DNA from: a virus
Virus record (IMG/VR): IMGVR_UViG_3300022539_000485
Coordinates: 1-32,343 of that record
Length of the DNA: 32,343 nt
Direction: 5' to 3' (one strand)
Made by a program: the position numbers and the translations under genes. The notes beneath the pieces are model-generated. The model made no database searches and had not been told where the DNA came from. It worked only from the letters and a program-made list of their open reading frames with translations. This document shows, one piece after another, positions 9,432 through 30,642 of this stretch (position 1 is the first letter of the stretch; every line of letters starts with the position of its first letter).

Positions 9432-9812
9432 ATGACTAAAAGCAGTGGAAGTATTATAGGACTTCCAACAGTTGTTTTTATTTGTTGGGTCGCTTATGCA
9501 TTTTTCAGTAACGGTGACGATGATCAAAAAAAGACTGAAGTCAAAACAGAAGAAGAGCAGATCATCTCAGAAGAAACAAAAAAAGAGGTTGAGAAAAGTT
9601 TGCGAGAAATTGTCACTTCAGCTAAAAAAGCATATGAGGAAGTGAAAAAAGATCTCGGCAAACAACAGAAAGAAGGTGAGAAAATTGACGAGACACAAGA
9701 TCAGCAAACGCCTGAAGAAGAAGTTATTGAAAAAAGAGAAGAAGAGAAGTTGGAAACTCTCAAACCTCTGGAAGAAAAAACCAGAGAAGAAGTAGAGTTT
9801 AAAAGATTATGA
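9432..9812 (+). CDS. Membrane-anchored charged coiled-coil protein
   Basis: The 126-residue product has one hydrophobic segment at about residues 8-25 (IIGLPTVVFICWVAYAFF). A long, highly charged Glu/Lys-rich region follows, predicted coiled coil and disordered. No catalytic motif is seen. GAAAGGAG precedes the ATG. Its stop overlaps the start of the radical SAM gene (ATGA), so the two are translationally coupled. It may anchor or scaffold the island's other products at the membrane, which is inference. Confidence 0.8.
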   Translation: MTKSSGSIIGLPTVVFICWVAYAFFSNGDDDQKKTEVKTEEEQIISEETKKEVEKSLREIVTSAKKAYEEVKKDLGKQQKEGEKIDETQDQQTPEEEVIEKREEEKLETLKPLEEKTREEVEFKRL

Positions 9813-10822
9813 TATTTTTTGATAAAGTTTTCAGAAACTCTGATTATGAAATCTTTTTTAATTCAGCTAGTGGACTTGAGACAATACGAGGGAGCAATGG
9901 TAAAGAAGACCCATTTTCTTTATATTTACCTTCATTATTAGACGTGGGCATTATGGGACACTGTAAACATAAATGCTCATTTTGTTACCAAGGACATTCA
10001 AATAAACCCAATATGAAAATCGAGGATTTCAAATCAATTATAGATCAAGTAAAGCACCATACAAATCAGGTTGCTTTAGGAGGTAGAGGTGATCCGAATC
10101 ATCACGAGAATTTTGAAGAGATAATCTCATATGCTCGTAAGAATGGAGTTGTACCAAACTATACAACAAGCGGTATTGATTTAACAGATAAGCAAATTGA
10201 AATATCAAAAATGTGTGGAGCAGTTGCAGTTTCTGACTATGGAGCGGATTACACATATGAAGCTCTAGAAAAGTTAATGGATGCAAAAATAAAAACCAAT
10301 ATTCATTTAATATTTGCCAAGCACACATTTAGCATGGCAACAAGAATTCTATATGGTTACCATCCCTGGTTACATCATACAAGAAATTCTACCAAAAAAC
10401 TTGTCGATATTGATAGATTAAATGCTGTAATATTTTTATTATTTAAACCAGCAGGTGCCGGAAAAGATCTTGATTGGAAACCAACTAACTATCATTTTTC
10501 ATCATTTGCAAACCTTGTCTTTAACCCAAAGTCCAAGTTCAAAATTGGAATGGACAGTTGTTTAGTTAATCATGTCTTAAAATATGTTGAACCAAACAAA
10601 CTTCAAAAAATGTCAATTGATACATGCGAAGGTTCAAGGATGTCAGCATATATTACTCCAGATATGAAAATGATGCCCTGTAGTTTTGCAGACGAAAGCA
10701 AATGGTCAATTCCAATAAAGGGTAAAAAAGATATTAATTATATTTGGAATCGTTCAATGAAGTTTAAATCGTTTAGAACAATATTGCGAAAAAATCAAAT
10801 GTGTTGCCCATTAGGACTATAG
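9809..10822 (+). CDS. Radical SAM enzyme with SPASM-like C-terminal cysteines
   Basis: The 337-residue protein has the radical SAM CxxxCxxC cluster motif at C52, C56 and C59 (HCKHKCSFCYQG) and a GGRGDP stretch at 91-96, where GGEP-type motifs sit. The C-terminal third carries C251, C273, C291, C332 and C333 in a context (TCEGSRMSAYITPD, then MPCSF) like SPASM/twitch auxiliary-cluster domains of peptide-modifying enzymes. It overlaps the upstream gene by 4 nt and is followed 13 nt later by a gene for a protein with a conserved-looking Ser-rich N-terminus, a candidate substrate. The actual reaction is unknown. Radical SAM enzymes of this kind are unusual within a tail gene cluster. Confidence 0.88.
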   Translation: MIFFDKVFRNSDYEIFFNSASGLETIRGSNGKEDPFSLYLPSLLDVGIMGHCKHKCSFCYQGHSNKPNMKIEDFKSIIDQVKHHTNQVALGGRGDPNHHENFEEIISYARKNGVVPNYTTSGIDLTDKQIEISKMCGAVAVSDYGADYTYEALEKLMDAKIKTNIHLIFAKHTFSMATRILYGYHPWLHHTRNSTKKLVDIDRLNAVIFLLFKPAGAGKDLDWKPTNYHFSSFANLVFNPKSKFKIGMDSCLVNHVLKYVEPNKLQKMSIDTCEGSRMSAYITPDMKMMPCSFADESKWSIPIKGKKDINYIWNRSMKFKSFRTILRKNQMCCPLGL

Positions 10823-10835
10823 GAGACAACTAAAA

Positions 10836-11339
10836 ATGAAAATCAAAACCGATTTCGTAACCAACTCTAGTTCTTCATCTTTCATTGTCGTCTGGCCCTG
10901 TAAAATTACAAATAGAGGGCATGTATCTAAATATATACATAAACCAGACTTCGTCGATATTATTTTTAGAGATGCTATAAAACAAAAACCTCATAAACTT
11001 GGTCCAAGATGCATTTCTAAACTGGTTGCAGAACTCAGGACTGGTTATGTTGATGGTATTGAAGATTCTTGGAACCTTCAAGAAAAATTCTGTAAAAGAG
11101 AAGGTATCAAAACAGGAGACATTTGGAAAAATGAGCAATGGCGTGACTTGTGTTGGGAAGAAACAGATATTATTCGATTAGGGCAGGCAAAAGAAAAAGC
11201 TAAAGATTTTATATCAAGGAGTGGTAAAGGATATGTATACTATTTTGAATATGCTGATGAAGATGGTGGAATCTTTGCTAAACTGGAACACGACAACGAC
11301 TGGGGCGGACTCCCGTGTATCAGGGTTAGCCACCACTAA
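10836..11339 (+). CDS. Protein with N-terminal TDFVTNSSSSSF motif, candidate partner of the radical SAM enzyme
   Basis: This 167-residue protein begins MKIKTDFVTNSSSSSFIVV. I recall such an N-terminus from assorted bacterial and phage proteins of unknown function, but I cannot cite a defined family. The rest is mixed alpha/beta, with Cys and His residues including a CIRVSHH terminus. AGGAGA precedes the ATG, and the gene starts 13 nt after the radical SAM gene. The pairing makes it a plausible substrate or partner of the radical SAM protein, but no processing site or core peptide is proven. Confidence 0.78.
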   Translation: MKIKTDFVTNSSSSSFIVVWPCKITNRGHVSKYIHKPDFVDIIFRDAIKQKPHKLGPRCISKLVAELRTGYVDGIEDSWNLQEKFCKREGIKTGDIWKNEQWRDLCWEETDIIRLGQAKEKAKDFISRSGKGYVYYFEYADEDGGIFAKLEHDNDWGGLPCIRVSHH

Positions 11340-11930: not shown

Positions 11931-11973
11931 AAAGAGCCACTCAAGATTTAATCTCGAGTGACTCTTTTTTTTG
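11931..11973. terminator. Bidirectional intrinsic terminator between convergent genes
   Basis: The arms AAAGAG-C-CACTC (11931-11942) and GAGTG-A-CTCTTT (11956-11967) pair. An inner AGAT/ATCT stem extends the hairpin. It is followed by a run of T on the plus strand and preceded by A's, so it can stop both island 1 and the sheath transcript. Confidence 0.88.
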
Positions 11974-11979
11974 GTTAAA

Positions 11980-13932
11980 TTATACAATAAAGAAGTTCAG
12001 TTCAATTTGTTCTACAGTTCTTGTAGGTTCTAGTAATACATTAACGTGGAATTTCTTCGTGCGTCGTTCATAAGATGTTGCGCTTACTTCTACTGAAAAG
12101 TTTGTTAGACCACGTTTCTTCTTAATTACTTCAAGAAAGTCAACTAGATTACCTGCTACAAGAGACCAAGTGATCGCATCGTTTTGTTCAAAGATGAAGA
12201 AACGACAGAAATCTTCAAATGCTCTCTTGATATATAGAATAAGTCTAACAATATTCAAGTCTTGTAAAGCGCTCGCTTTCGCTTGAGATGTTAACTGACC
12301 CCATACAACATATCCAGGATTGAATTTCACAATCGGATTTAGTTGTTTTAGATACAGTTGATCCCTTTCTCCAAGTCTTGGATTGAAACGAAGTTCTTTA
12401 ATTGTGTCGATTGCTGCTCTATTGAAACCAGCTGCTGCGAACCAAAGTTCAGCTACAGTATCGTTTCTTGGTAGAATATATGACATGTGATAAATTGGTG
12501 AGAACCACACATCCTGTCCTGTAAATGAATCAAATACTTTATTATATGATTCATATAGAGCAATAAAGTAATTATTAAATTTATTAGTATTATTTCTTGC
12601 AGCAAGAGATAGAGTAACGGTAGAGTTATCACCATTATCAACAATACCAACACAGTCACGTCTTGTTTGACATAAGGTACTAATCGCAGTTTTAACATCA
12701 GATGGGTACCCACAATCAAATACCATTGAGAAGTAAGTGTTTTCATTATCAAGTACAGTATCATCAATGATGCCACTATATGATTGATTCAAAAGTAGTG
12801 TAGCTTCAACAGTATCTAAAGAACCATCAGCTTCTAATAAATCTCCATCATTTCCCCTTTTGAGTGGTACAGGATTTGCAGATGTAAATGCTTGAGCAAC
12901 TGAACCATAAGATTTCTTAATACGATATTCAATCGCAGAAGCATTATCAAAAGTCGATATACTACCATTCCAGGTTTGTGTTGATAGTGATACTTCAGAA
13001 AAGACGTTAATTATTGAATCTTCTGCTCCAGAAGCAGCTCCACACCAACCCCAGATTTCAATTCCTCTGGCATCCTTAGCGACAATAACATAATCACCTG
13101 TGCCAGTTCCTTCCCAATCAGAGAAATCTTGTTTAATATCTGTAAGATCAGCAGAACCCGATGTTAATGTAACTTGTATATTTGTATCAATATCTTTATC
13201 ATAAATTTTAATATTTTCAATATATCCAGCAGATAAACGATCTGTGCTTTCACTAATCCACATCTCTGCTTTAAGAACTGATGAATATGTATTTAATATA
13301 TCGACAATCCAAATTGAATCTCCTGCACTATCTTTCGCTGTTTTTTCAAACGAAACTTCGAACGATTCAATAATTGCATCTTGACCATCAGATTGTCTTT
13401 CATAGATGTCTAGGATATATTGATCCCAAAGCGTTGGATTAGAAACTTCCGTTAATCTTACACCTATTTTATTATACCATTGCCCCCTTCCGATTGGATA
13501 TAAGAAGCAAACTGGGTATGCAGTACTATCTTGTGCTAAATTAGTTCCAAACTCACTGACTGCGTTCATACCTTCTACAAATGTAATCTGCATACCAGCA
13601 GTTGAATCTCCAGGAACGATTGTTGCATCGATCCTCATGTTTGCATACGCAGCATTATCAGAAAGAACTCTCATGAAGAAAAGAGAACCCGATTCTCCCA
13701 AATAATTGTACGCGCAATATGGACCTTGTCCGTAGTTTTTGCCATATGTTGCAATGTTTGGTTCACCATATTCCGAAATATAATCAGCTCTTGATCCAAT
13801 AAATTTTAAAGTGTTATCTTCTCCTTTTTCGGTAAGAGCTGCGATGAATCCAATTGTTGAGGGTACGGCCTGAACAAACTGAGAAAGGTCAATAATTTTA
13901 CTAAAAACTCCTTGTGAAACGTTAGCAGCCAT
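11980..13932 (-). CDS. Contractile tail sheath protein
   Basis: The 650-residue product is a myophage tail sheath, which forms the contractile cylinder around the tube. The N-terminus has SQFVQAVPSTIGFIAALTEKG, followed by GSRADYISEYGEPN, a typical sheath opening. The C-terminal domain has WFAAAGFNRAAIDTIKELRF, LYLKQLNPIVKFNPGYVVWG and RLILYIKRAFEDFCRFFIFE, the conserved polymerisation region of sheaths. Length is close to T4 gp18 (about 660). AGGAGG lies 10 nt before the ATG. A 174-nt leader-like gap separates it from the upstream gene and contains a TATAAATT sequence on the coding strand that could be a late promoter. Confidence 0.93.
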   Translation of the reverse strand: MAANVSQGVFSKIIDLSQFVQAVPSTIGFIAALTEKGEDNTLKFIGSRADYISEYGEPNIATYGKNYGQGPYCAYNYLGESGSLFFMRVLSDNAAYANMRIDATIVPGDSTAGMQITFVEGMNAVSEFGTNLAQDSTAYPVCFLYPIGRGQWYNKIGVRLTEVSNPTLWDQYILDIYERQSDGQDAIIESFEVSFEKTAKDSAGDSIWIVDILNTYSSVLKAEMWISESTDRLSAGYIENIKIYDKDIDTNIQVTLTSGSADLTDIKQDFSDWEGTGTGDYVIVAKDARGIEIWGWCGAASGAEDSIINVFSEVSLSTQTWNGSISTFDNASAIEYRIKKSYGSVAQAFTSANPVPLKRGNDGDLLEADGSLDTVEATLLLNQSYSGIIDDTVLDNENTYFSMVFDCGYPSDVKTAISTLCQTRRDCVGIVDNGDNSTVTLSLAARNNTNKFNNYFIALYESYNKVFDSFTGQDVWFSPIYHMSYILPRNDTVAELWFAAAGFNRAAIDTIKELRFNPRLGERDQLYLKQLNPIVKFNPGYVVWGQLTSQAKASALQDLNIVRLILYIKRAFEDFCRFFIFEQNDAITWSLVAGNLVDFLEVIKKKRGLTNFSVEVSATSYERRTKKFHVNVLLEPTRTVEQIELNFFIV

Positions 13933-14036
13933 TAGCGTATCCTCCTACTTAAAATTTTTTCTCTGTTATTTAATTCTAATCTTTTTCTATAGATAGTAAA
14001 AATCTCCTTGAAACATTTTCAGAATTTATAATTTTT

Positions 14037-16032: not shown

Positions 16033-16407
16033 ATGAAAAATCAAAAAGGTTTTACCTTTATTGAGATAATAGCGGTAATAGTGATAATAAGTATGATATG
16101 TATTGTTATACTTCCAAGAATGTATTGCTTAAGTGAATCTGCTAGAAAGCAGGTCATTAAAAGTATCAATATCGAGCTTAATGGTAGAGAAATGACAGCA
16201 TGGGTTTACACTCATCTGGACTATGGATTTAAGTCCGATGAACAAGTATTTACTTATGTTGACCATCAACTTAATGGTTGCACATGGAACTTTATTGATA
16301 TTTCTGGAGGAATCTTACAATACGAAAAAACCGTTATACATCTCAACAGAAGGCCAGCAAGTGCAGAAACTCCCGCTAGATGGTCTGCTACGGGAACAAA
16401 GAATTAA
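16033..16407 (+). CDS. Type IV prepilin / pseudopilin-like protein
   Basis: The 124-residue protein begins MKNQKGFTFIEIIAVIVIIS. This is the class III signal of type IV pilins: a short basic leader, G, then F-T-F-I-E with Glu at position 5 of the predicted mature chain, and a hydrophobic helix to about residue 28. Host prepilin peptidase would be expected to cut after G6. The remainder has Cys at 31 and 87 and mixed beta content, and is shorter than most major pilins, closer to minor pilins or pseudopilins. GGGAGGAT precedes the ATG. The gene has its own promoter-like element and terminator on the plus strand amid minus-strand late genes, like a moron. Confidence 0.85.
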   Translation: MKNQKGFTFIEIIAVIVIISMICIVILPRMYCLSESARKQVIKSINIELNGREMTAWVYTHLDYGFKSDEQVFTYVDHQLNGCTWNFIDISGGILQYEKTVIHLNRRPASAETPARWSATGTKN

Positions 16408-16890: not shown

Positions 16891-17045
16891 AGTGGGAGCT
16901 ATACCCGTTGGAGTATCCTGAATCGAGTCGTTTGGGACCACCAACCCAGGTAAGCGATGACTCACCCACTCTTTTAAGTGGGACGATGGCCTTTTGGGCA
17001 AGAACGCCCGGCAACACCCATGTTGTCTAACCGTCCCACTTTTTT
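16891..17045 (+). terminator. Tandem structured RNA and terminator with alternating AGUGGG/CCCACU boxes
   Basis: Arm 1 AGTGGG (16891-16896) can pair with CCCACT (16965-16970), enclosing a GAGTC/GACTC stem (16925-16929 and 16959-16963). Arm 2 AAGTGGGACG (16976-16985) pairs perfectly with CGTCCCACTT (17032-17041), enclosing GGGC/GCCC and GGCAACA/TGTTGTC hairpins, and runs into T's. The middle boxes CCCACT and AGTGGG can also pair with each other, giving mutually exclusive folds. GTTGG (16907-16911) complements CCAAC (16941-16945), a possible tertiary pairing. It ends the 68-residue gene's transcript. A regulatory RNA role is inference. Confidence 0.75.
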
Positions 17046-23961: not shown

Positions 23962-24414
23962 TTAGTGATTTTCTTTTTCAAATTCTTTAATTGCTTTATT
24001 AATCATATCCTCTTTTGCTTTTTCTATCTTCTTTTGCCACTCTATAGATTCTTGTTTATGATCAACTTTATGATCAACAACGTCACTTATAAAGACATAT
24101 GTAGTAGTTAATACTGTGAATGTAACTAATACAACAAGTATCATTTTATTTACTTTACTAGCAAGTCTTTTTACTTCTGCCATTAAATCTTCACTTGTAA
24201 TTTTAACAGTTTCAGTGCATAAATCAATACCTTCCGCTGAATTTTTTGCGTGGTCTTTTAAAGCTTGTTTTAAATCTTCAATTGGTAAATATTTAATATG
24301 ACCAACTAGCTCAAGCTGTTGAACCATTAACTGTTGTGTTGCTTCCTCATTTTTATCAGAAGACTCTTTTAATGTTTCAAATAACTTAAGAAGTATGTCT
24401 ATATTACTGCTCAT
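23962..24414 (-). CDS. Single-pass membrane coiled-coil protein coupled to the receiver-PAS gene
   Basis: The 150-residue protein has a long N-terminal helical region (1-90, heptad-like), one membrane segment at about 91-110 (MILVVLVTFTVLTTTYVFIS), then a charged coiled-coil tail. Its ATG shares one base with the stop of the receiver-PAS gene (TAATG), indicating tight coupling. It lacks obvious kinase or methyl-accepting motifs. Membrane partner or output for the receiver-PAS protein is a reasonable guess, no more. Confidence 0.72.
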   Translation of the reverse strand: MSSNIDILLKLFETLKESSDKNEEATQQLMVQQLELVGHIKYLPIEDLKQALKDHAKNSAEGIDLCTETVKITSEDLMAEVKRLASKVNKMILVVLVTFTVLTTTYVFISDVVDHKVDHKQESIEWQKKIEKAKEDMINKAIKEFEKENH

Positions 24415-25340
24415 TATGATACCTCACCTACATTTAAAGAAAGTATTTCACTATCTATTAATTTAAGTTGTTTTTCTTTCTTATTATTTCTTACGATAAT
24501 TTCTTCTTTCCATTCATGGATCTTACTTTCTAATGCCATAAAAACTTCTGTCTCTTTCTTCTTCAAAGCTTCCTCTGCTAACTTCTGGGATGTTATATCA
24601 ATACCAACAACATTTTCATTAATTACATTTTTATTCTTATCCTGTATAAATTCAGATGTGGTTAACATCCAAAATGTTGAACCATCTTTTCTAATACCTT
24701 CATATTCAAACACATCGTCTATATATTCTCTACGACTCATAGATTCCTGCCTTTTTACAAAGTTAAGCATACTAGATTCAGTTAAAACATCAACAGGACC
24801 CATATTAAGAAGTTCATCTTTACTCCACTCAAGTTGTTTACACATAACATCATTCACATAAGCAAATTTTCCAGAAACATAATCTATCTCAAATATAATT
24901 GCTCCAGTGACTTCAACTAAATACCTATATTTATTTTCTAATTTTTTTCTTCCAATAGAATATATTATAGATCTCTCAAGTAAATGTGTAGATGCTTCTA
25001 ATTTAAATATATAATCTTGAGCACCCAGTTTTACACATTCGTATGTGGTTTCCTCATGAGCTGAGATAATTATGATAGGAATAAAGTCACATTTATTTTT
25101 TATCATTTTAAACGTGCCTATCCCCTTACTATCTGGAAGAACTAAATCAAGCAAAATAACATCTATTTCACATAAATAAATATCTTTACAGTTAGTATCC
25201 AAATATTCTAAAGTATCCTTTATAGTTTTTTTACGGATAATATTAAAGTTATTACGATCAGACAGTCGTAAATAAGTTAATATAAGATGAGCAGAATTGT
25301 CGTCATCTTCAATATGTAATACATTTATTTTTTCAGACAT
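24414..25340 (-). CDS. Response-regulator receiver plus PAS domain protein
   Basis: The 308-residue protein has an N-terminal receiver domain (1-130). The acidic pocket is E11, D12, D13. The phosphoacceptor is D65 (ILLDLVLPD), with S93 (IISAHEE) and K113 (YIFKLEA), all in canonical places. A PAS domain follows (about 138-260), with YVNDVMCKQLEWSKDELL and FEYEGIRKDGSTFWMLTTSE. A C-terminal charged coiled coil follows with no kinase, DNA-binding or cyclase output domain. This is a bacterial signalling architecture embedded in a phage virion operon. GAGG precedes the ATG. It might tap host two-component signalling, but no partner is known. Confidence 0.88.
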   Translation of the reverse strand: MSEKINVLHIEDDDNSAHLILTYLRLSDRNNFNIIRKKTIKDTLEYLDTNCKDIYLCEIDVILLDLVLPDSKGIGTFKMIKNKCDFIPIIIISAHEETTYECVKLGAQDYIFKLEASTHLLERSIIYSIGRKKLENKYRYLVEVTGAIIFEIDYVSGKFAYVNDVMCKQLEWSKDELLNMGPVDVLTESSMLNFVKRQESMSRREYIDDVFEYEGIRKDGSTFWMLTTSEFIQDKNKNVINENVVGIDITSQKLAEEALKKKETEVFMALESKIHEWKEEIIVRNNKKEKQLKLIDSEILSLNVGEVS

Positions 25341-28506: not shown

Positions 28507-28527
28507 CTATATATATTAATATCTGAA
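28507..28527 (+). promoter_or_regulatory. Class A promoter-like element before the pseudoknot unit
   Basis: CTATATATATTAAT followed by ATCTGAAA. The tail differs from the usual AAGTGAAAG. It precedes an early terminator and the small gene at 28638. Confidence 0.62.
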
Positions 28528-28565
28528 ATGAAGTTTCTTCATCTTTATTTCATCCTATCGTGCTT

Positions 28566-28609
28566 CCTGGTCTAGCATTGTTTTTAATGTTAGGCCAGGT
28601 TTTACTTTA
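28566..28609 (+). terminator. Perfect 14-bp hairpin with U tract, possible attenuator
   Basis: CCTGGTCTAGCATT (28566-28579) pairs fully with AATGTTAGGCCAGG (28586-28599), including two wobble pairs and a 6-nt loop. TTTTACTTT follows. It lies between the class A element and the 53-residue gene, so it may attenuate that gene or end a short RNA. Confidence 0.75.
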
Positions 28610-28637
28610 ATTATATCAATTTATTTAGGAGAAATTT

Positions 28638-28799
28638 ATGTTAACGCTGCTTAAAATATGTTTAGGATTAACACTTCCATTATCTTTTTTTAGATTAGTT
28701 CTATGTATGACAGATATACCCCCAAAAACTGTATTCCGTTATATAGATTACGTGGTTGATGACAATGGGATATTAGTTTATACCAAAAAGAAAGTATAA
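28638..28799 (+). CDS. Small membrane-type protein (53 aa)
   Basis: TTTAGGAGAAATTT precedes the ATG. The product starts MLTLLKICLGLTLPLSFFRL, a hydrophobic N-terminal segment long enough to span a membrane. A short basic tail follows (DDNGILVYTKKKV). No family is recognised. It is the only coding sequence between the attenuator-like hairpin and the pseudoknot array. Confidence 0.6.
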   Translation: MLTLLKICLGLTLPLSFFRLVLCMTDIPPKTVFRYIDYVVDDNGILVYTKKKV

Positions 28800-28812
28800 G
28801 AGTTTCAGTTAA

Positions 28813-28969
28813 GGTGATGGTATTTCGCGGGAAATCCATTGCCCTCGCCTAGACACACGGCGGGTTTAGTAGTGTGTCACTCGCCTAGCACACGGCGGGA
28901 CCCTTTATGGGATTAGTAGTGTGCTCCTTCACTCGCTCTGGCACATGGCGGGAGGATAGAGTATGTGCT
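28813..28969 (+). ncRNA. Structured RNA: hairpin followed by three tandem H-type pseudoknots
   Basis: A 13-bp hairpin (28813-28843) leads into three units. Unit 1: stem CTCGCC (28844-28849) with GGCGGG (28859-28864), and loop GACACAC (28852-28858) with GTGTGTC (28872-28878). Unit 2: CTCGCC (28880-28885) with GGCGGG (28894-28899), and loop AGCACAC (28887-28893) with GTGTGCT (28919-28925). Its linker carries an extra CCC/GGG mini-hairpin (28901-28911). Unit 3: CTCGCT (28932-28937) with GGCGGG (28947-28952), and GGCACAT (28940-28946) with ATGTGCT (28963-28969). Loop pairings change between units while staying complementary, good evidence for real structure. The strand is inferred from the class A promoter and terminator. 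Function unknown. Confidence 0.85.
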
Positions 28970-28995
28970 GGACAAGACTTAGTCAAGCCTTGTTC

Positions 28996-29048
28996 CCCTT
29001 TCTGAAAAGGGTACTCAGATTCACTTGTGGATTTGGTACCCTTTTTTT
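28996..29048 (+). terminator. Terminator with competing upstream hairpin
   Basis: AAAAGGGTAC (29005-29014) pairs with GTACCC (29036-29041) and the following T's, with an inner AGATTCAC/GTGGATTT stem. The same AAAGGG (29006-29011) can instead pair with CCCTTT (28996-29001), which would disrupt the terminator. This is an attenuation-like layout at the end of the pseudoknot RNA. Confidence 0.75.
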
Positions 29049-29123: not shown

Positions 29124-29146
29124 CTATATATATTAATAAGTGAAGG
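29124..29146 (+). promoter_or_regulatory. Class A promoter-like element
   Basis: CTATATATATTAAT followed by AAGTGAAGG, about 28 nt before the first gene of a two-gene membrane protein unit. Confidence 0.66.
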
Positions 29147-29173: not shown

Positions 29174-29434
29174 ATGATAGAGGACCTTTTTGATGATTTA
29201 GGAAAATTTATAATTGATAAGTTTCTAAACCCATGTAAGAAATGTTTAGTAAGAGCAGTATGTAAACCAGTCTGGACGTCATGTGATAATTACACCCAAT
29301 ATCTAGATCGAATAGATGTAGCAGGAGATGCAATCAAAATGTGCGCAATAATATTATTACTTTTTATGGAATTTTTTATTATTATTATAGTAATTGGACC
29401 TGAATTATATGGATTGTTTAAGTCAATTTTTTAG
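29174..29434 (+). CDS. Small Cys-motif membrane protein, paralogue A
   Basis: The 86-residue product has an N-terminal cytoplasmic-like helix, then NPCKKCLVRAVCKPVWTSCD, and a strongly hydrophobic C-terminal half (about 55-82). TAGGAGATT precedes the ATG. It shares NPCKKCLVRA and the layout with the next gene, so the two are tandem duplicates. The CxxC plus downstream Cys may bind metal or be redox-active. Function unknown. Confidence 0.72.
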   Translation: MIEDLFDDLGKFIIDKFLNPCKKCLVRAVCKPVWTSCDNYTQYLDRIDVAGDAIKMCAIILLLFMEFFIIIIVIGPELYGLFKSIF

Positions 29435-29689: not shown

Positions 29690-29710
29690 GAGGGGTTATT
29701 TCCACCCCTC
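29690..29710. terminator. Hairpin between convergent genes
   Basis: GAGGGG (29690-29695) and CCCCTC (29705-29710) pair across a 9-nt loop between the plus-strand membrane gene and the convergent SET gene, inside the SET gene's last codons. No T-run follows on either side, so its strength as a terminator is doubtful. Confidence 0.35.
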
Positions 29711-30031
29711 TTCTGGCTGCTCAAGTTCTTTATTGACAGTATAGTCTACAGTAACTTCATCATCTTTCTTAACATTTTTTTCTGCATATGTTTGATATGA
29801 ATTATCTTTCTGCTTTATAGAACGAGCACTTGGATTCGAAGAATGATTTAAAAAAGAACCAAACTCTGTAATGTTATCATTCACATCAAAATGAGTATTT
29901 ATAAAATCTCCTTTTCTAAAAGGTTTCTTTGCGAAAACTCCTTTTCCATGAATAGGAGAAGAACGAATTGTATAGTTGTTCATAAGAGATTTACTATAAA
30001 TCTCATTTAAATATTTATCTAATATACTCAT
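29696..30031 (-). CDS. Minimal SET-domain protein
   Basis: The 111-residue protein has SET-domain motifs in order. They are SPIHGKGVFA (25-34), FGSFLNHSSNPSA (57-69) with the NHS segment that binds S-adenosylmethionine, YQTYAEKNVKKDDEVTVDYT (79-98) and the final DYT. It lacks pre- and post-SET regions, so it is much shorter than eukaryotic enzymes, like the short stand-alone SET proteins of viruses and bacteria. It would be expected to methylate lysines on an unknown protein. A class B promoter-like site is 18 nt upstream. Confidence 0.85.
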   Translation of the reverse strand: MSILDKYLNEIYSKSLMNNYTIRSSPIHGKGVFAKKPFRKGDFINTHFDVNDNITEFGSFLNHSSNPSARSIKQKDNSYQTYAEKNVKKDDEVTVDYTVNKELEQPEEGWK

Positions 30032-30321: not shown

Positions 30322-30642
30322 ATGAAAGCAAATGAAGTAGTTGAAACAGCTATCTCTGTTATCTATCTTGCACTTCTTATCATGTATATTATACAAATAT
30401 TCTACAGACCTGCATATTATTATGGCAGTAGGGTAAGAAACCGTTTTAACGGAAAGCATTGGAAATTGGCAGCTAAGGCATTCGGCATCAGAGTAAACAA
30501 ACTGAAAAAGATGTCTAAGGATGAAATCAAAAAAGTATATCGAGAGAAGGCGAAGAAAAATCATCCTGACCGTGGAGGCAACGCTAAAGATTTTAACAAT
30601 CTCCATGAAGCATACCAATTTGCATATGCTGCCGCATCATAA
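30322..30642 (+). CDS. Membrane-anchored J-domain (DnaJ-like) protein
   Basis: The 106-residue protein has one N-terminal membrane segment (about 10-27, ISVIYLALLIMYIIQIFY) and a C-terminal J domain. The J domain contains helix II KKVYREKAKKNH, the HPD motif at 81-83 (NHPDRGG), and a helix III sequence DFNNLHEAYQFAY. J proteins stimulate Hsp70 (DnaK) ATPase, so this would recruit the host chaperone to the membrane or to a viral client. GGGAGG precedes the ATG. The client is unknown. A terminator follows. Confidence 0.88.
   Translation: MKANEVVETAISVIYLALLIMYIIQIFYRPAYYYGSRVRNRFNGKHWKLAAKAFGIRVNKLKKMSKDEIKKVYREKAKKNHPDRGGNAKDFNNLHEAYQFAYAAAS

What the first reader, a model, noticed from the sequence alone, without database searches (positions are those of the whole stretch)
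28813..28969. Three tandem H-type pseudoknots with compensatory changes between copies
Each unit has a 6-bp stem (CUCGCC or CUCGCU with GGCGGG). Its loop pairs 7 bp with a segment 7-19 nt downstream. The loop/partner sequences differ among units (GACACAC/GUGUGUC, AGCACAC/GUGUGCU, GGCACAU/AUGUGCU) yet stay complementary. Unit 2 also has its own inserted CCC/GGG hairpin. This is convincing within-locus covariation. Tandem pseudoknot RNAs are known from type III toxin-antitoxin systems, where repeats precede a terminator and a ToxN-type gene of about 170 codons. No such gene is visible here. Possible roles are a decoy antitoxin against host ToxN, a protein-sequestering or nuclease-stalling RNA, or an unknown RNA family.
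Basis: partly seen in the sequence, partly recalled or inferred. Interest (0 to 1): 0.88.

Follow-up and report, generated by a model that had tools for sequence, protein, structure and literature searches.

The report
Phage RNA with three tandem pseudoknots
A virus of bacteria known only from environmental DNA encodes, right after a tiny gene and before a transcription stop signal, an RNA stretch that can fold into three knots in a row; nothing like it was found in its relatives, and although it resembles RNA antidotes that neutralise bacterial toxins, no such toxin lies next to it and its job is unproven.

Summary
At 28844-28969 (+) three adjacent H-type pseudoknots are present, each with a 6-bp stem 1 and a 7-bp stem 2. 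Three stem-2 positions change on both sides between copies while pairing is kept. Conserved G-U pairs make the + strand the folding strand. None of 4000 dinucleotide shuffles gave two strong units. The array is the only tight tandem cluster in about 1.8 Mb of relatives, both strands, and the most GC-rich intergenic island there. It lies in one inferred transcription unit: phage promoter motif (28507), 53-aa ORF, hairpin abutting unit 1, three pseudoknots, terminator (about 29048). The next gene has its own promoter motif (29124).

No homologue of the RNA was found in IMG/VR pattern scans, INPHARED, PLSDB or Rfam, so cross-phage covariation cannot be tested. The one syntenic relative lacks the array. 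It is not a type III toxin-antitoxin locus: the gene after the terminator encodes an 86-aa protein of no known family, with its own promoter. Likeliest function: a trans-acting multivalent protein-binding or decoy RNA (inference, about 0.35). Main rival: a structured, stabilising 3' UTR. Nearest precedent: pseudo-ToxI of phage PhiTE.

The parts
28507..28521 (+). Phage promoter motif CTATATATATTAATA (inferred promoter of the unit)
   Evidence: 6 copies with 0-1 mismatch in the window, all + strand before + strand ORFs; 67 in window plus relatives
28566..28599 (+). Leader hairpin (terminator-like or 5' stabilising)
   Evidence: 15 pairs followed by TTTTACTTTA
28638..28799 (+). 53-aa ORF with ribosome-binding site; no known family
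28813..28843 (+). 13-bp hairpin directly abutting pseudoknot 1
   Evidence: MFE fold, 94% of its pairing is internal
28844..28878 (+). Pseudoknot unit 1: S1 28844-28849/28859-28864, S2 28852-28858/28872-28878
28880..28925 (+). Pseudoknot unit 2: S1 28880-28885/28894-28899, S2 28887-28893/28919-28925, with a CCC/GGG mini-hairpin in loop 3
28932..28969 (+). Pseudoknot unit 3: S1 28932-28937/28947-28952, S2 28940-28946/28963-28969, with three G-U pairs
28970..28996 (+). Small hairpin after the array
   Evidence: MFE fold
29005..29048 (+). Intrinsic terminator: long hairpin plus U tract
   Evidence: MFE fold, 97% of its pairing is internal; sequence
29124..29138 (+). Second copy of the promoter motif, starting the next unit (86-aa ORF 29174-29434)

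Best explanation
The array is the noncoding 3' part of a short phage transcript (about 28528-29048), made from a phage-specific promoter and ended by an intrinsic terminator. It folds into a hairpin followed by three closely stacked H-type pseudoknots. The multiplied, co-varying unit most likely serves as a multivalent binding site for one RNA-binding protein and acts in trans, as a decoy or antitoxin-like RNA that titrates a host ribonuclease or another RNA-binding protein during infection. Shown by sequence: pairing potential, within-array covariation in stem 2, strand polarity, promoter motif, terminator, lack of an adjacent toxin. Inferred: actual transcription, folding in vivo, protein binding and the decoy role.
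For: Tandem H-type units far beyond chance; three stem-2 pairs changed on both sides with pairing kept, and G-U pairs that only work on the + strand; own promoter motif and terminator; GC island in an AT-rich genome; only tiny ORFs inside the array; located among small variable genes without relatives. Repeated pseudoknots as protein-binding units are established for type III antitoxins (PMC5086642), and RNA mimicry by a phage is established for PhiTE (PMC3475682).
Against: No partner protein, transcript or homologue is known. Units diverge more than repeats of one protein-binding site usually do (unit 2 insertion, unit 3 changes). The array shares its inferred transcript with the 53-aa ORF, which also suits a 3' UTR role. 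Linkers are short (1 and 6 nt), unlike the single-stranded tails that ToxN holds.
Confidence: 0.35

Rival explanations
1. A structured 3' UTR of the 53-aa mRNA. Stacked pseudoknots and hairpins slow exonucleases, stabilising the message or leaving a stable 3' fragment, with no dedicated protein partner.
For: The stop codon lies 13 nt before the first hairpin and the terminator follows the array, so ORF and array share one inferred transcript.
Against: A terminator hairpin is usually enough; three copies of one fold with compensated changes suggest a repeated specific shape. No other tight tandem array after genes was found in relatives.
Confidence: 0.3
2. A cis-regulatory element: tandem ligand or protein sensors that control termination before the downstream 86-aa gene.
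For: The array lies directly upstream of a terminator and the next + strand ORF.
Against: The downstream gene has its own promoter motif at 29124; no alternative antiterminator pairing is evident, 97% of terminator pairing is internal; no Rfam riboswitch match.
Confidence: 0.12
3. An orphan type III antitoxin whose toxin is encoded elsewhere in the phage or the host (addiction or protection against a plasmid- or host-borne toxin).
For: Unit sizes of 35-46 nt, number of units and following terminator match type III antitoxin arrays (34-36, 45 or 50 nt, 2.1-5.5 repeats; PMC12373285).
Against: No toxin beside it. Type III toxins are defined by being directly downstream. Search of relatives for ToxN negative but inconclusive, as its control failed.
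Confidence: 0.1
4. Recent tandem duplication of one chance hairpin, without function.
For: Units 1 and 2 are very similar, stem 1 is almost invariant, and there is no conservation outside this record.
Against: Stem 2 changed on both sides at three positions while pairing was kept; unit 3 is clearly diverged yet pairs 6/6 and 7/7; GC island inside a promoter-terminator unit.
Confidence: 0.08

Closest known systems
Type III antitoxin RNAs (ToxI, antiQ, CptI, TenpI) and the AbiF ncRNA RCd22
   Same: Tandem short structured units (H-type pseudoknots in ToxI and CptI) ahead of an intrinsic terminator; unit length 34-50 nt; CptI also has a one-base loop 1 and two coaxial duplex stems (PMC5086642; PMC12373285)
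   Different: No toxin gene downstream; downstream gene separately promoted; units diverged, one with an inserted hairpin; array cotranscribed behind a 53-aa ORF; no Rfam match, abiF family RF03085 included in the library searched
pseudo-ToxI of Pectobacterium phage PhiTE
   Same: Phage-encoded repeated RNA proposed to mimic an antitoxin pseudoknot (PMC3475682)
   Different: Wild-type PhiTE has only 1.5 repeats that do not encode a complete pseudoknot, and the activity arises by repeat expansion; here three complete, diverged units are present. ToxI sequence similarity was not tested directly
Tandem pseudoknots of tmRNA and of the tobamovirus 3' UTR
   Same: Several consecutive H-type pseudoknots forming a stalk (tmRNA: PMC1168896; TMV upstream pseudoknot domain: PMC4683447; details from general knowledge)
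   Different: No tRNA-like domain or tag ORF here; ARAGORN and Rfam find no tmRNA; no similarity to the tmRNA of relative G003 (score 14, shuffled mean 17); tobamoviruses are unrelated

Membership tests
Type III toxin-antitoxin system | tandem array of short nucleotide repeats that fold as pseudoknots | tested here: met
   Three tandem H-type units, 35-46 nt; folding itself not probed
Type III toxin-antitoxin system | intrinsic terminator directly after the array | tested here: met
   29005-29048
Type III toxin-antitoxin system | endoribonuclease toxin gene of the ToxN/CptN/TenpN fold directly downstream in the same operon | tested here: not met
   Next ORFs are 86 and 80 aa without Pfam, PHROG, PADLOC or NCBIfam match and have their own promoter motif
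Type III toxin-antitoxin system | a ToxN homologue anywhere in the phage | tested here: inconclusive
   PF13958: 0 of 36 records, but no control genome rang and the contig is a fragment
Type III toxin-antitoxin system | RNA binds and inhibits a cognate toxin and is cut into units | not testable with these tools
   needs experiment
pseudo-ToxI of PhiTE | sequence similarity to the ToxI repeat | not tested
   no PhiTE or ToxI sequence was aligned; blastn of the array against INPHARED gave no match
tmRNA | tRNA-like domain plus tag reading frame around the pseudoknots | tested here: not met
   ARAGORN and Rfam negative
Any Rfam family | covariance-model match at the gathering score | tested here: not met
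   None at gathering; only implausible hits at E 0.17-4.8. The models do not score pseudoknotted pairs, so sensitivity is limited

The most novel reading that the evidence does not exclude
A large phage carries a dedicated, stand-alone tandem-pseudoknot RNA, not a mutant or hijacked antitoxin, whose job is to bind and neutralise a host ribonuclease or other RNA-sensing defence protein, i.e. an RNA-based counter-defence of a new family.
Probability: 0.2. Interest if true: 0.8.

Novelty: new variant of a known kind. Interest (0 to 1): 0.5.

Why it matters
Protein counter-defences of phages are known in numbers, while RNA ones are few (pseudo-ToxI is the example read here). A compact, GC-rich tandem-pseudoknot RNA in a defined phage transcription unit is easy to express and test, and could widen the class of RNA decoys. 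If it is only a 3' UTR stabiliser, it is still an unusual way to end a phage message.

Tried and rejected
The pattern CACGGCGGG-N-TAGTAGTGTG gave 0 in IMG/VR and two chance hits in GTDB genomes. The small nearby proteins (193, 77 and 53 aa) gave no IMG/VR relatives by peptide patterns, although G007 holds a 67% identical copy of the 77-aa one, so this search is not exhaustive. G007 has a 789-aa gene instead of the array.

tmRNA remnant: rejected. Recoding signal for the 53-aa ORF: no slippery heptamer in frame, and the alternative frame stops inside unit 1 (read). Coding function of the array: only ORFs of 33 aa or less within it. Similarity of the 5' hairpin to L136 and L025: chance matches in coding DNA. 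The MFE fold cannot contain pseudoknots and shows mixed nested alternatives, so it was not used as evidence against them. The alignment A1 misplaces unit 2, so pairs were counted by script instead. A relaxed pseudoknot scan of relatives gave only unrelated pairs of hits.

Full report
What is there. The window is a 32-kb fragment (G000) of a contractile-tailed phage known only from metagenomes. Its sheath protein has at least 80 listed IMG/VR relatives, down to 62% identity, but only 25-29% identity to the best cultured phages such as phiR1-37, AR9 and PBS1. One relative sits on a 223-kb contig (G003).

Is it more than chance. My H-type scanner finds three consecutive units here and no other tandem cluster on either strand of about 1.8 Mb of window plus relatives (overlaps included), among 135 hits in all. 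None of 4000 dinucleotide shuffles of the same stretch gives two strong units. Stem 2 changes on both sides at pairs 1, 2 and 7 between units with pairing kept. Stem 1 is nearly invariant, so covariation is silent on it. All units keep a U-G in stem 1 and unit 3 has two more G-U pairs; on the other strand these become mismatches, so the + strand RNA is the structured product. Unit 2 differs from unit 1 mainly by a 12-nt insertion that folds on itself and leaves loop 3 otherwise almost unchanged. Energetically the pseudoknots win over the nested optimum unless each costs more than about 11 kcal/mol, above the commonly used initiation penalty of about 9-10 (from memory). Limit: the scanner misses looser pseudoknots such as those in the tmRNA of G003.

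Anatomy of the unit. The 15-nt motif CTATATATATTAATA occurs six times with 0-1 mismatch in the window, always on the + strand and before a + strand ORF, and 67 times with at most one mismatch in the window and the relatives' contigs scanned, mostly before an ORF; I take it as a phage promoter. From 28507 the order is: motif, leader hairpin (28566-28599), 53-aa ORF with a good ribosome-binding site, 13-nt spacer, 31-nt hairpin (28813-28843) abutting unit 1, three pseudoknots, small hairpin, intrinsic terminator (29005-29048). The following 86-aa gene has its own motif at 29124. The array is the most GC-rich noncoding island in all loci, 59% in a 32% GC contig.

Relatives. No homologue of the RNA was found in INPHARED, PLSDB, IMG/VR patterns, a GTDB pattern scan or Rfam. 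The 53-, 86- and 80-aa + strand neighbours have none among the fetched relatives or, for 53 and 86 aa, in INPHARED. The only syntenic relative, G007, has a 789-aa gene there instead.

Function. The layout (repeated pseudoknots of 35-46 nt, then a terminator) looks like a type III antitoxin array (PMC5086642; repeat sizes from PMC12373285). It is not a member of a type III locus, because the defining downstream toxin is missing and the next gene is separately promoted. A ToxN search of the window and 35 relatives was negative, but its control failed. Phages are known to use such RNA mimics: PhiTE escape mutants expand pseudo-ToxI (PMC3475682). My preferred reading is a trans-acting multivalent protein-binding or decoy RNA (0.35), followed by a stabilising 3' UTR (0.30), cis regulation (0.12), an orphan antitoxin with a toxin elsewhere (0.10) and non-functional recent duplication (0.08). 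The structure is well supported as a potential; transcription, folding and partner are untested.

Context that may help. Two relatives (G003, G013) have ORF-poor units behind the same promoter motif that carry 3-5 copies of another repeated structured element, some enclosing tRNA-like bodies. They are not related in sequence to the array as far as I can see, but suggest that this phage group makes repeated structured RNAs as a habit. This is an inference from two cases.

Verdict. A real and unusual element, new as a stand-alone natural array in a phage as far as these searches reach, of a structural kind already known.

Noticed in passing
window 16892-16972 (-); L013 6236-6316, L012 7558-7640, L038 6313-6395, also L061, L015, L045, L054, L057, L065, L083: A conserved GC-rich structured element of about 80 nt next to the metallophosphatase gene in many relatives (GTGGGG...CCCCAC outer arms); 8 of 13 predicted pairs show two-sided changes. 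No Rfam match. Possibly an elaborate bidirectional terminator or a new RNA family.
   Followed up: partly
L154 (-) reverse-strand positions 13327-13990 (G003) and L167 (-) reverse-strand positions 11931-12600 (G013): Noncoding units behind the promoter motif with 3-5 copies of a repeated element (stem, AGACTTnnTGTnATTTCAGA, variable insert, ACATTTnCTACTT, stem); some copies enclose tRNA-like bodies. Rfam sees only weak tRNA-type matches nearby.
   Followed up: partly
window 9366, 15974, 16560, 28507, 29124, 30070 (+): Phage-specific promoter-like motif CTATATATATTAATA, often followed by NNTGAA, 67 instances in window and relatives.
   Followed up: yes
L159 (G003): Large tRNA array (20 tRNA genes by ARAGORN in 20 kb), a tmRNA, and a tRNA called tRNA-Pyl with anticodon CTA in a 223-kb phage contig.
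   Followed up: no
L154 18569-18643 (-): A c-di-GMP-I-GGC riboswitch aptamer above the gathering score in a phage contig.
   Followed up: no
window 9809-10822 and 10836-11339 (+): A radical SAM protein followed by a 167-aa protein starting MKIKTDFVTNSSSSSF; both conserved in many relatives. May be a peptide-modification pair.
   Followed up: no
window 24414-25340 (-): Response-regulator plus PAS-domain protein encoded among phage structural genes.
   Followed up: no
window 29696-30031 (-) and 30322-30642 (+): Small SET-domain protein and a membrane-type DnaJ-domain protein near the array.
   Followed up: no
window 16033-16407 (+): 124-aa protein with a type IV pilin-like N-terminal methylation motif in a phage.
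   Followed up: no
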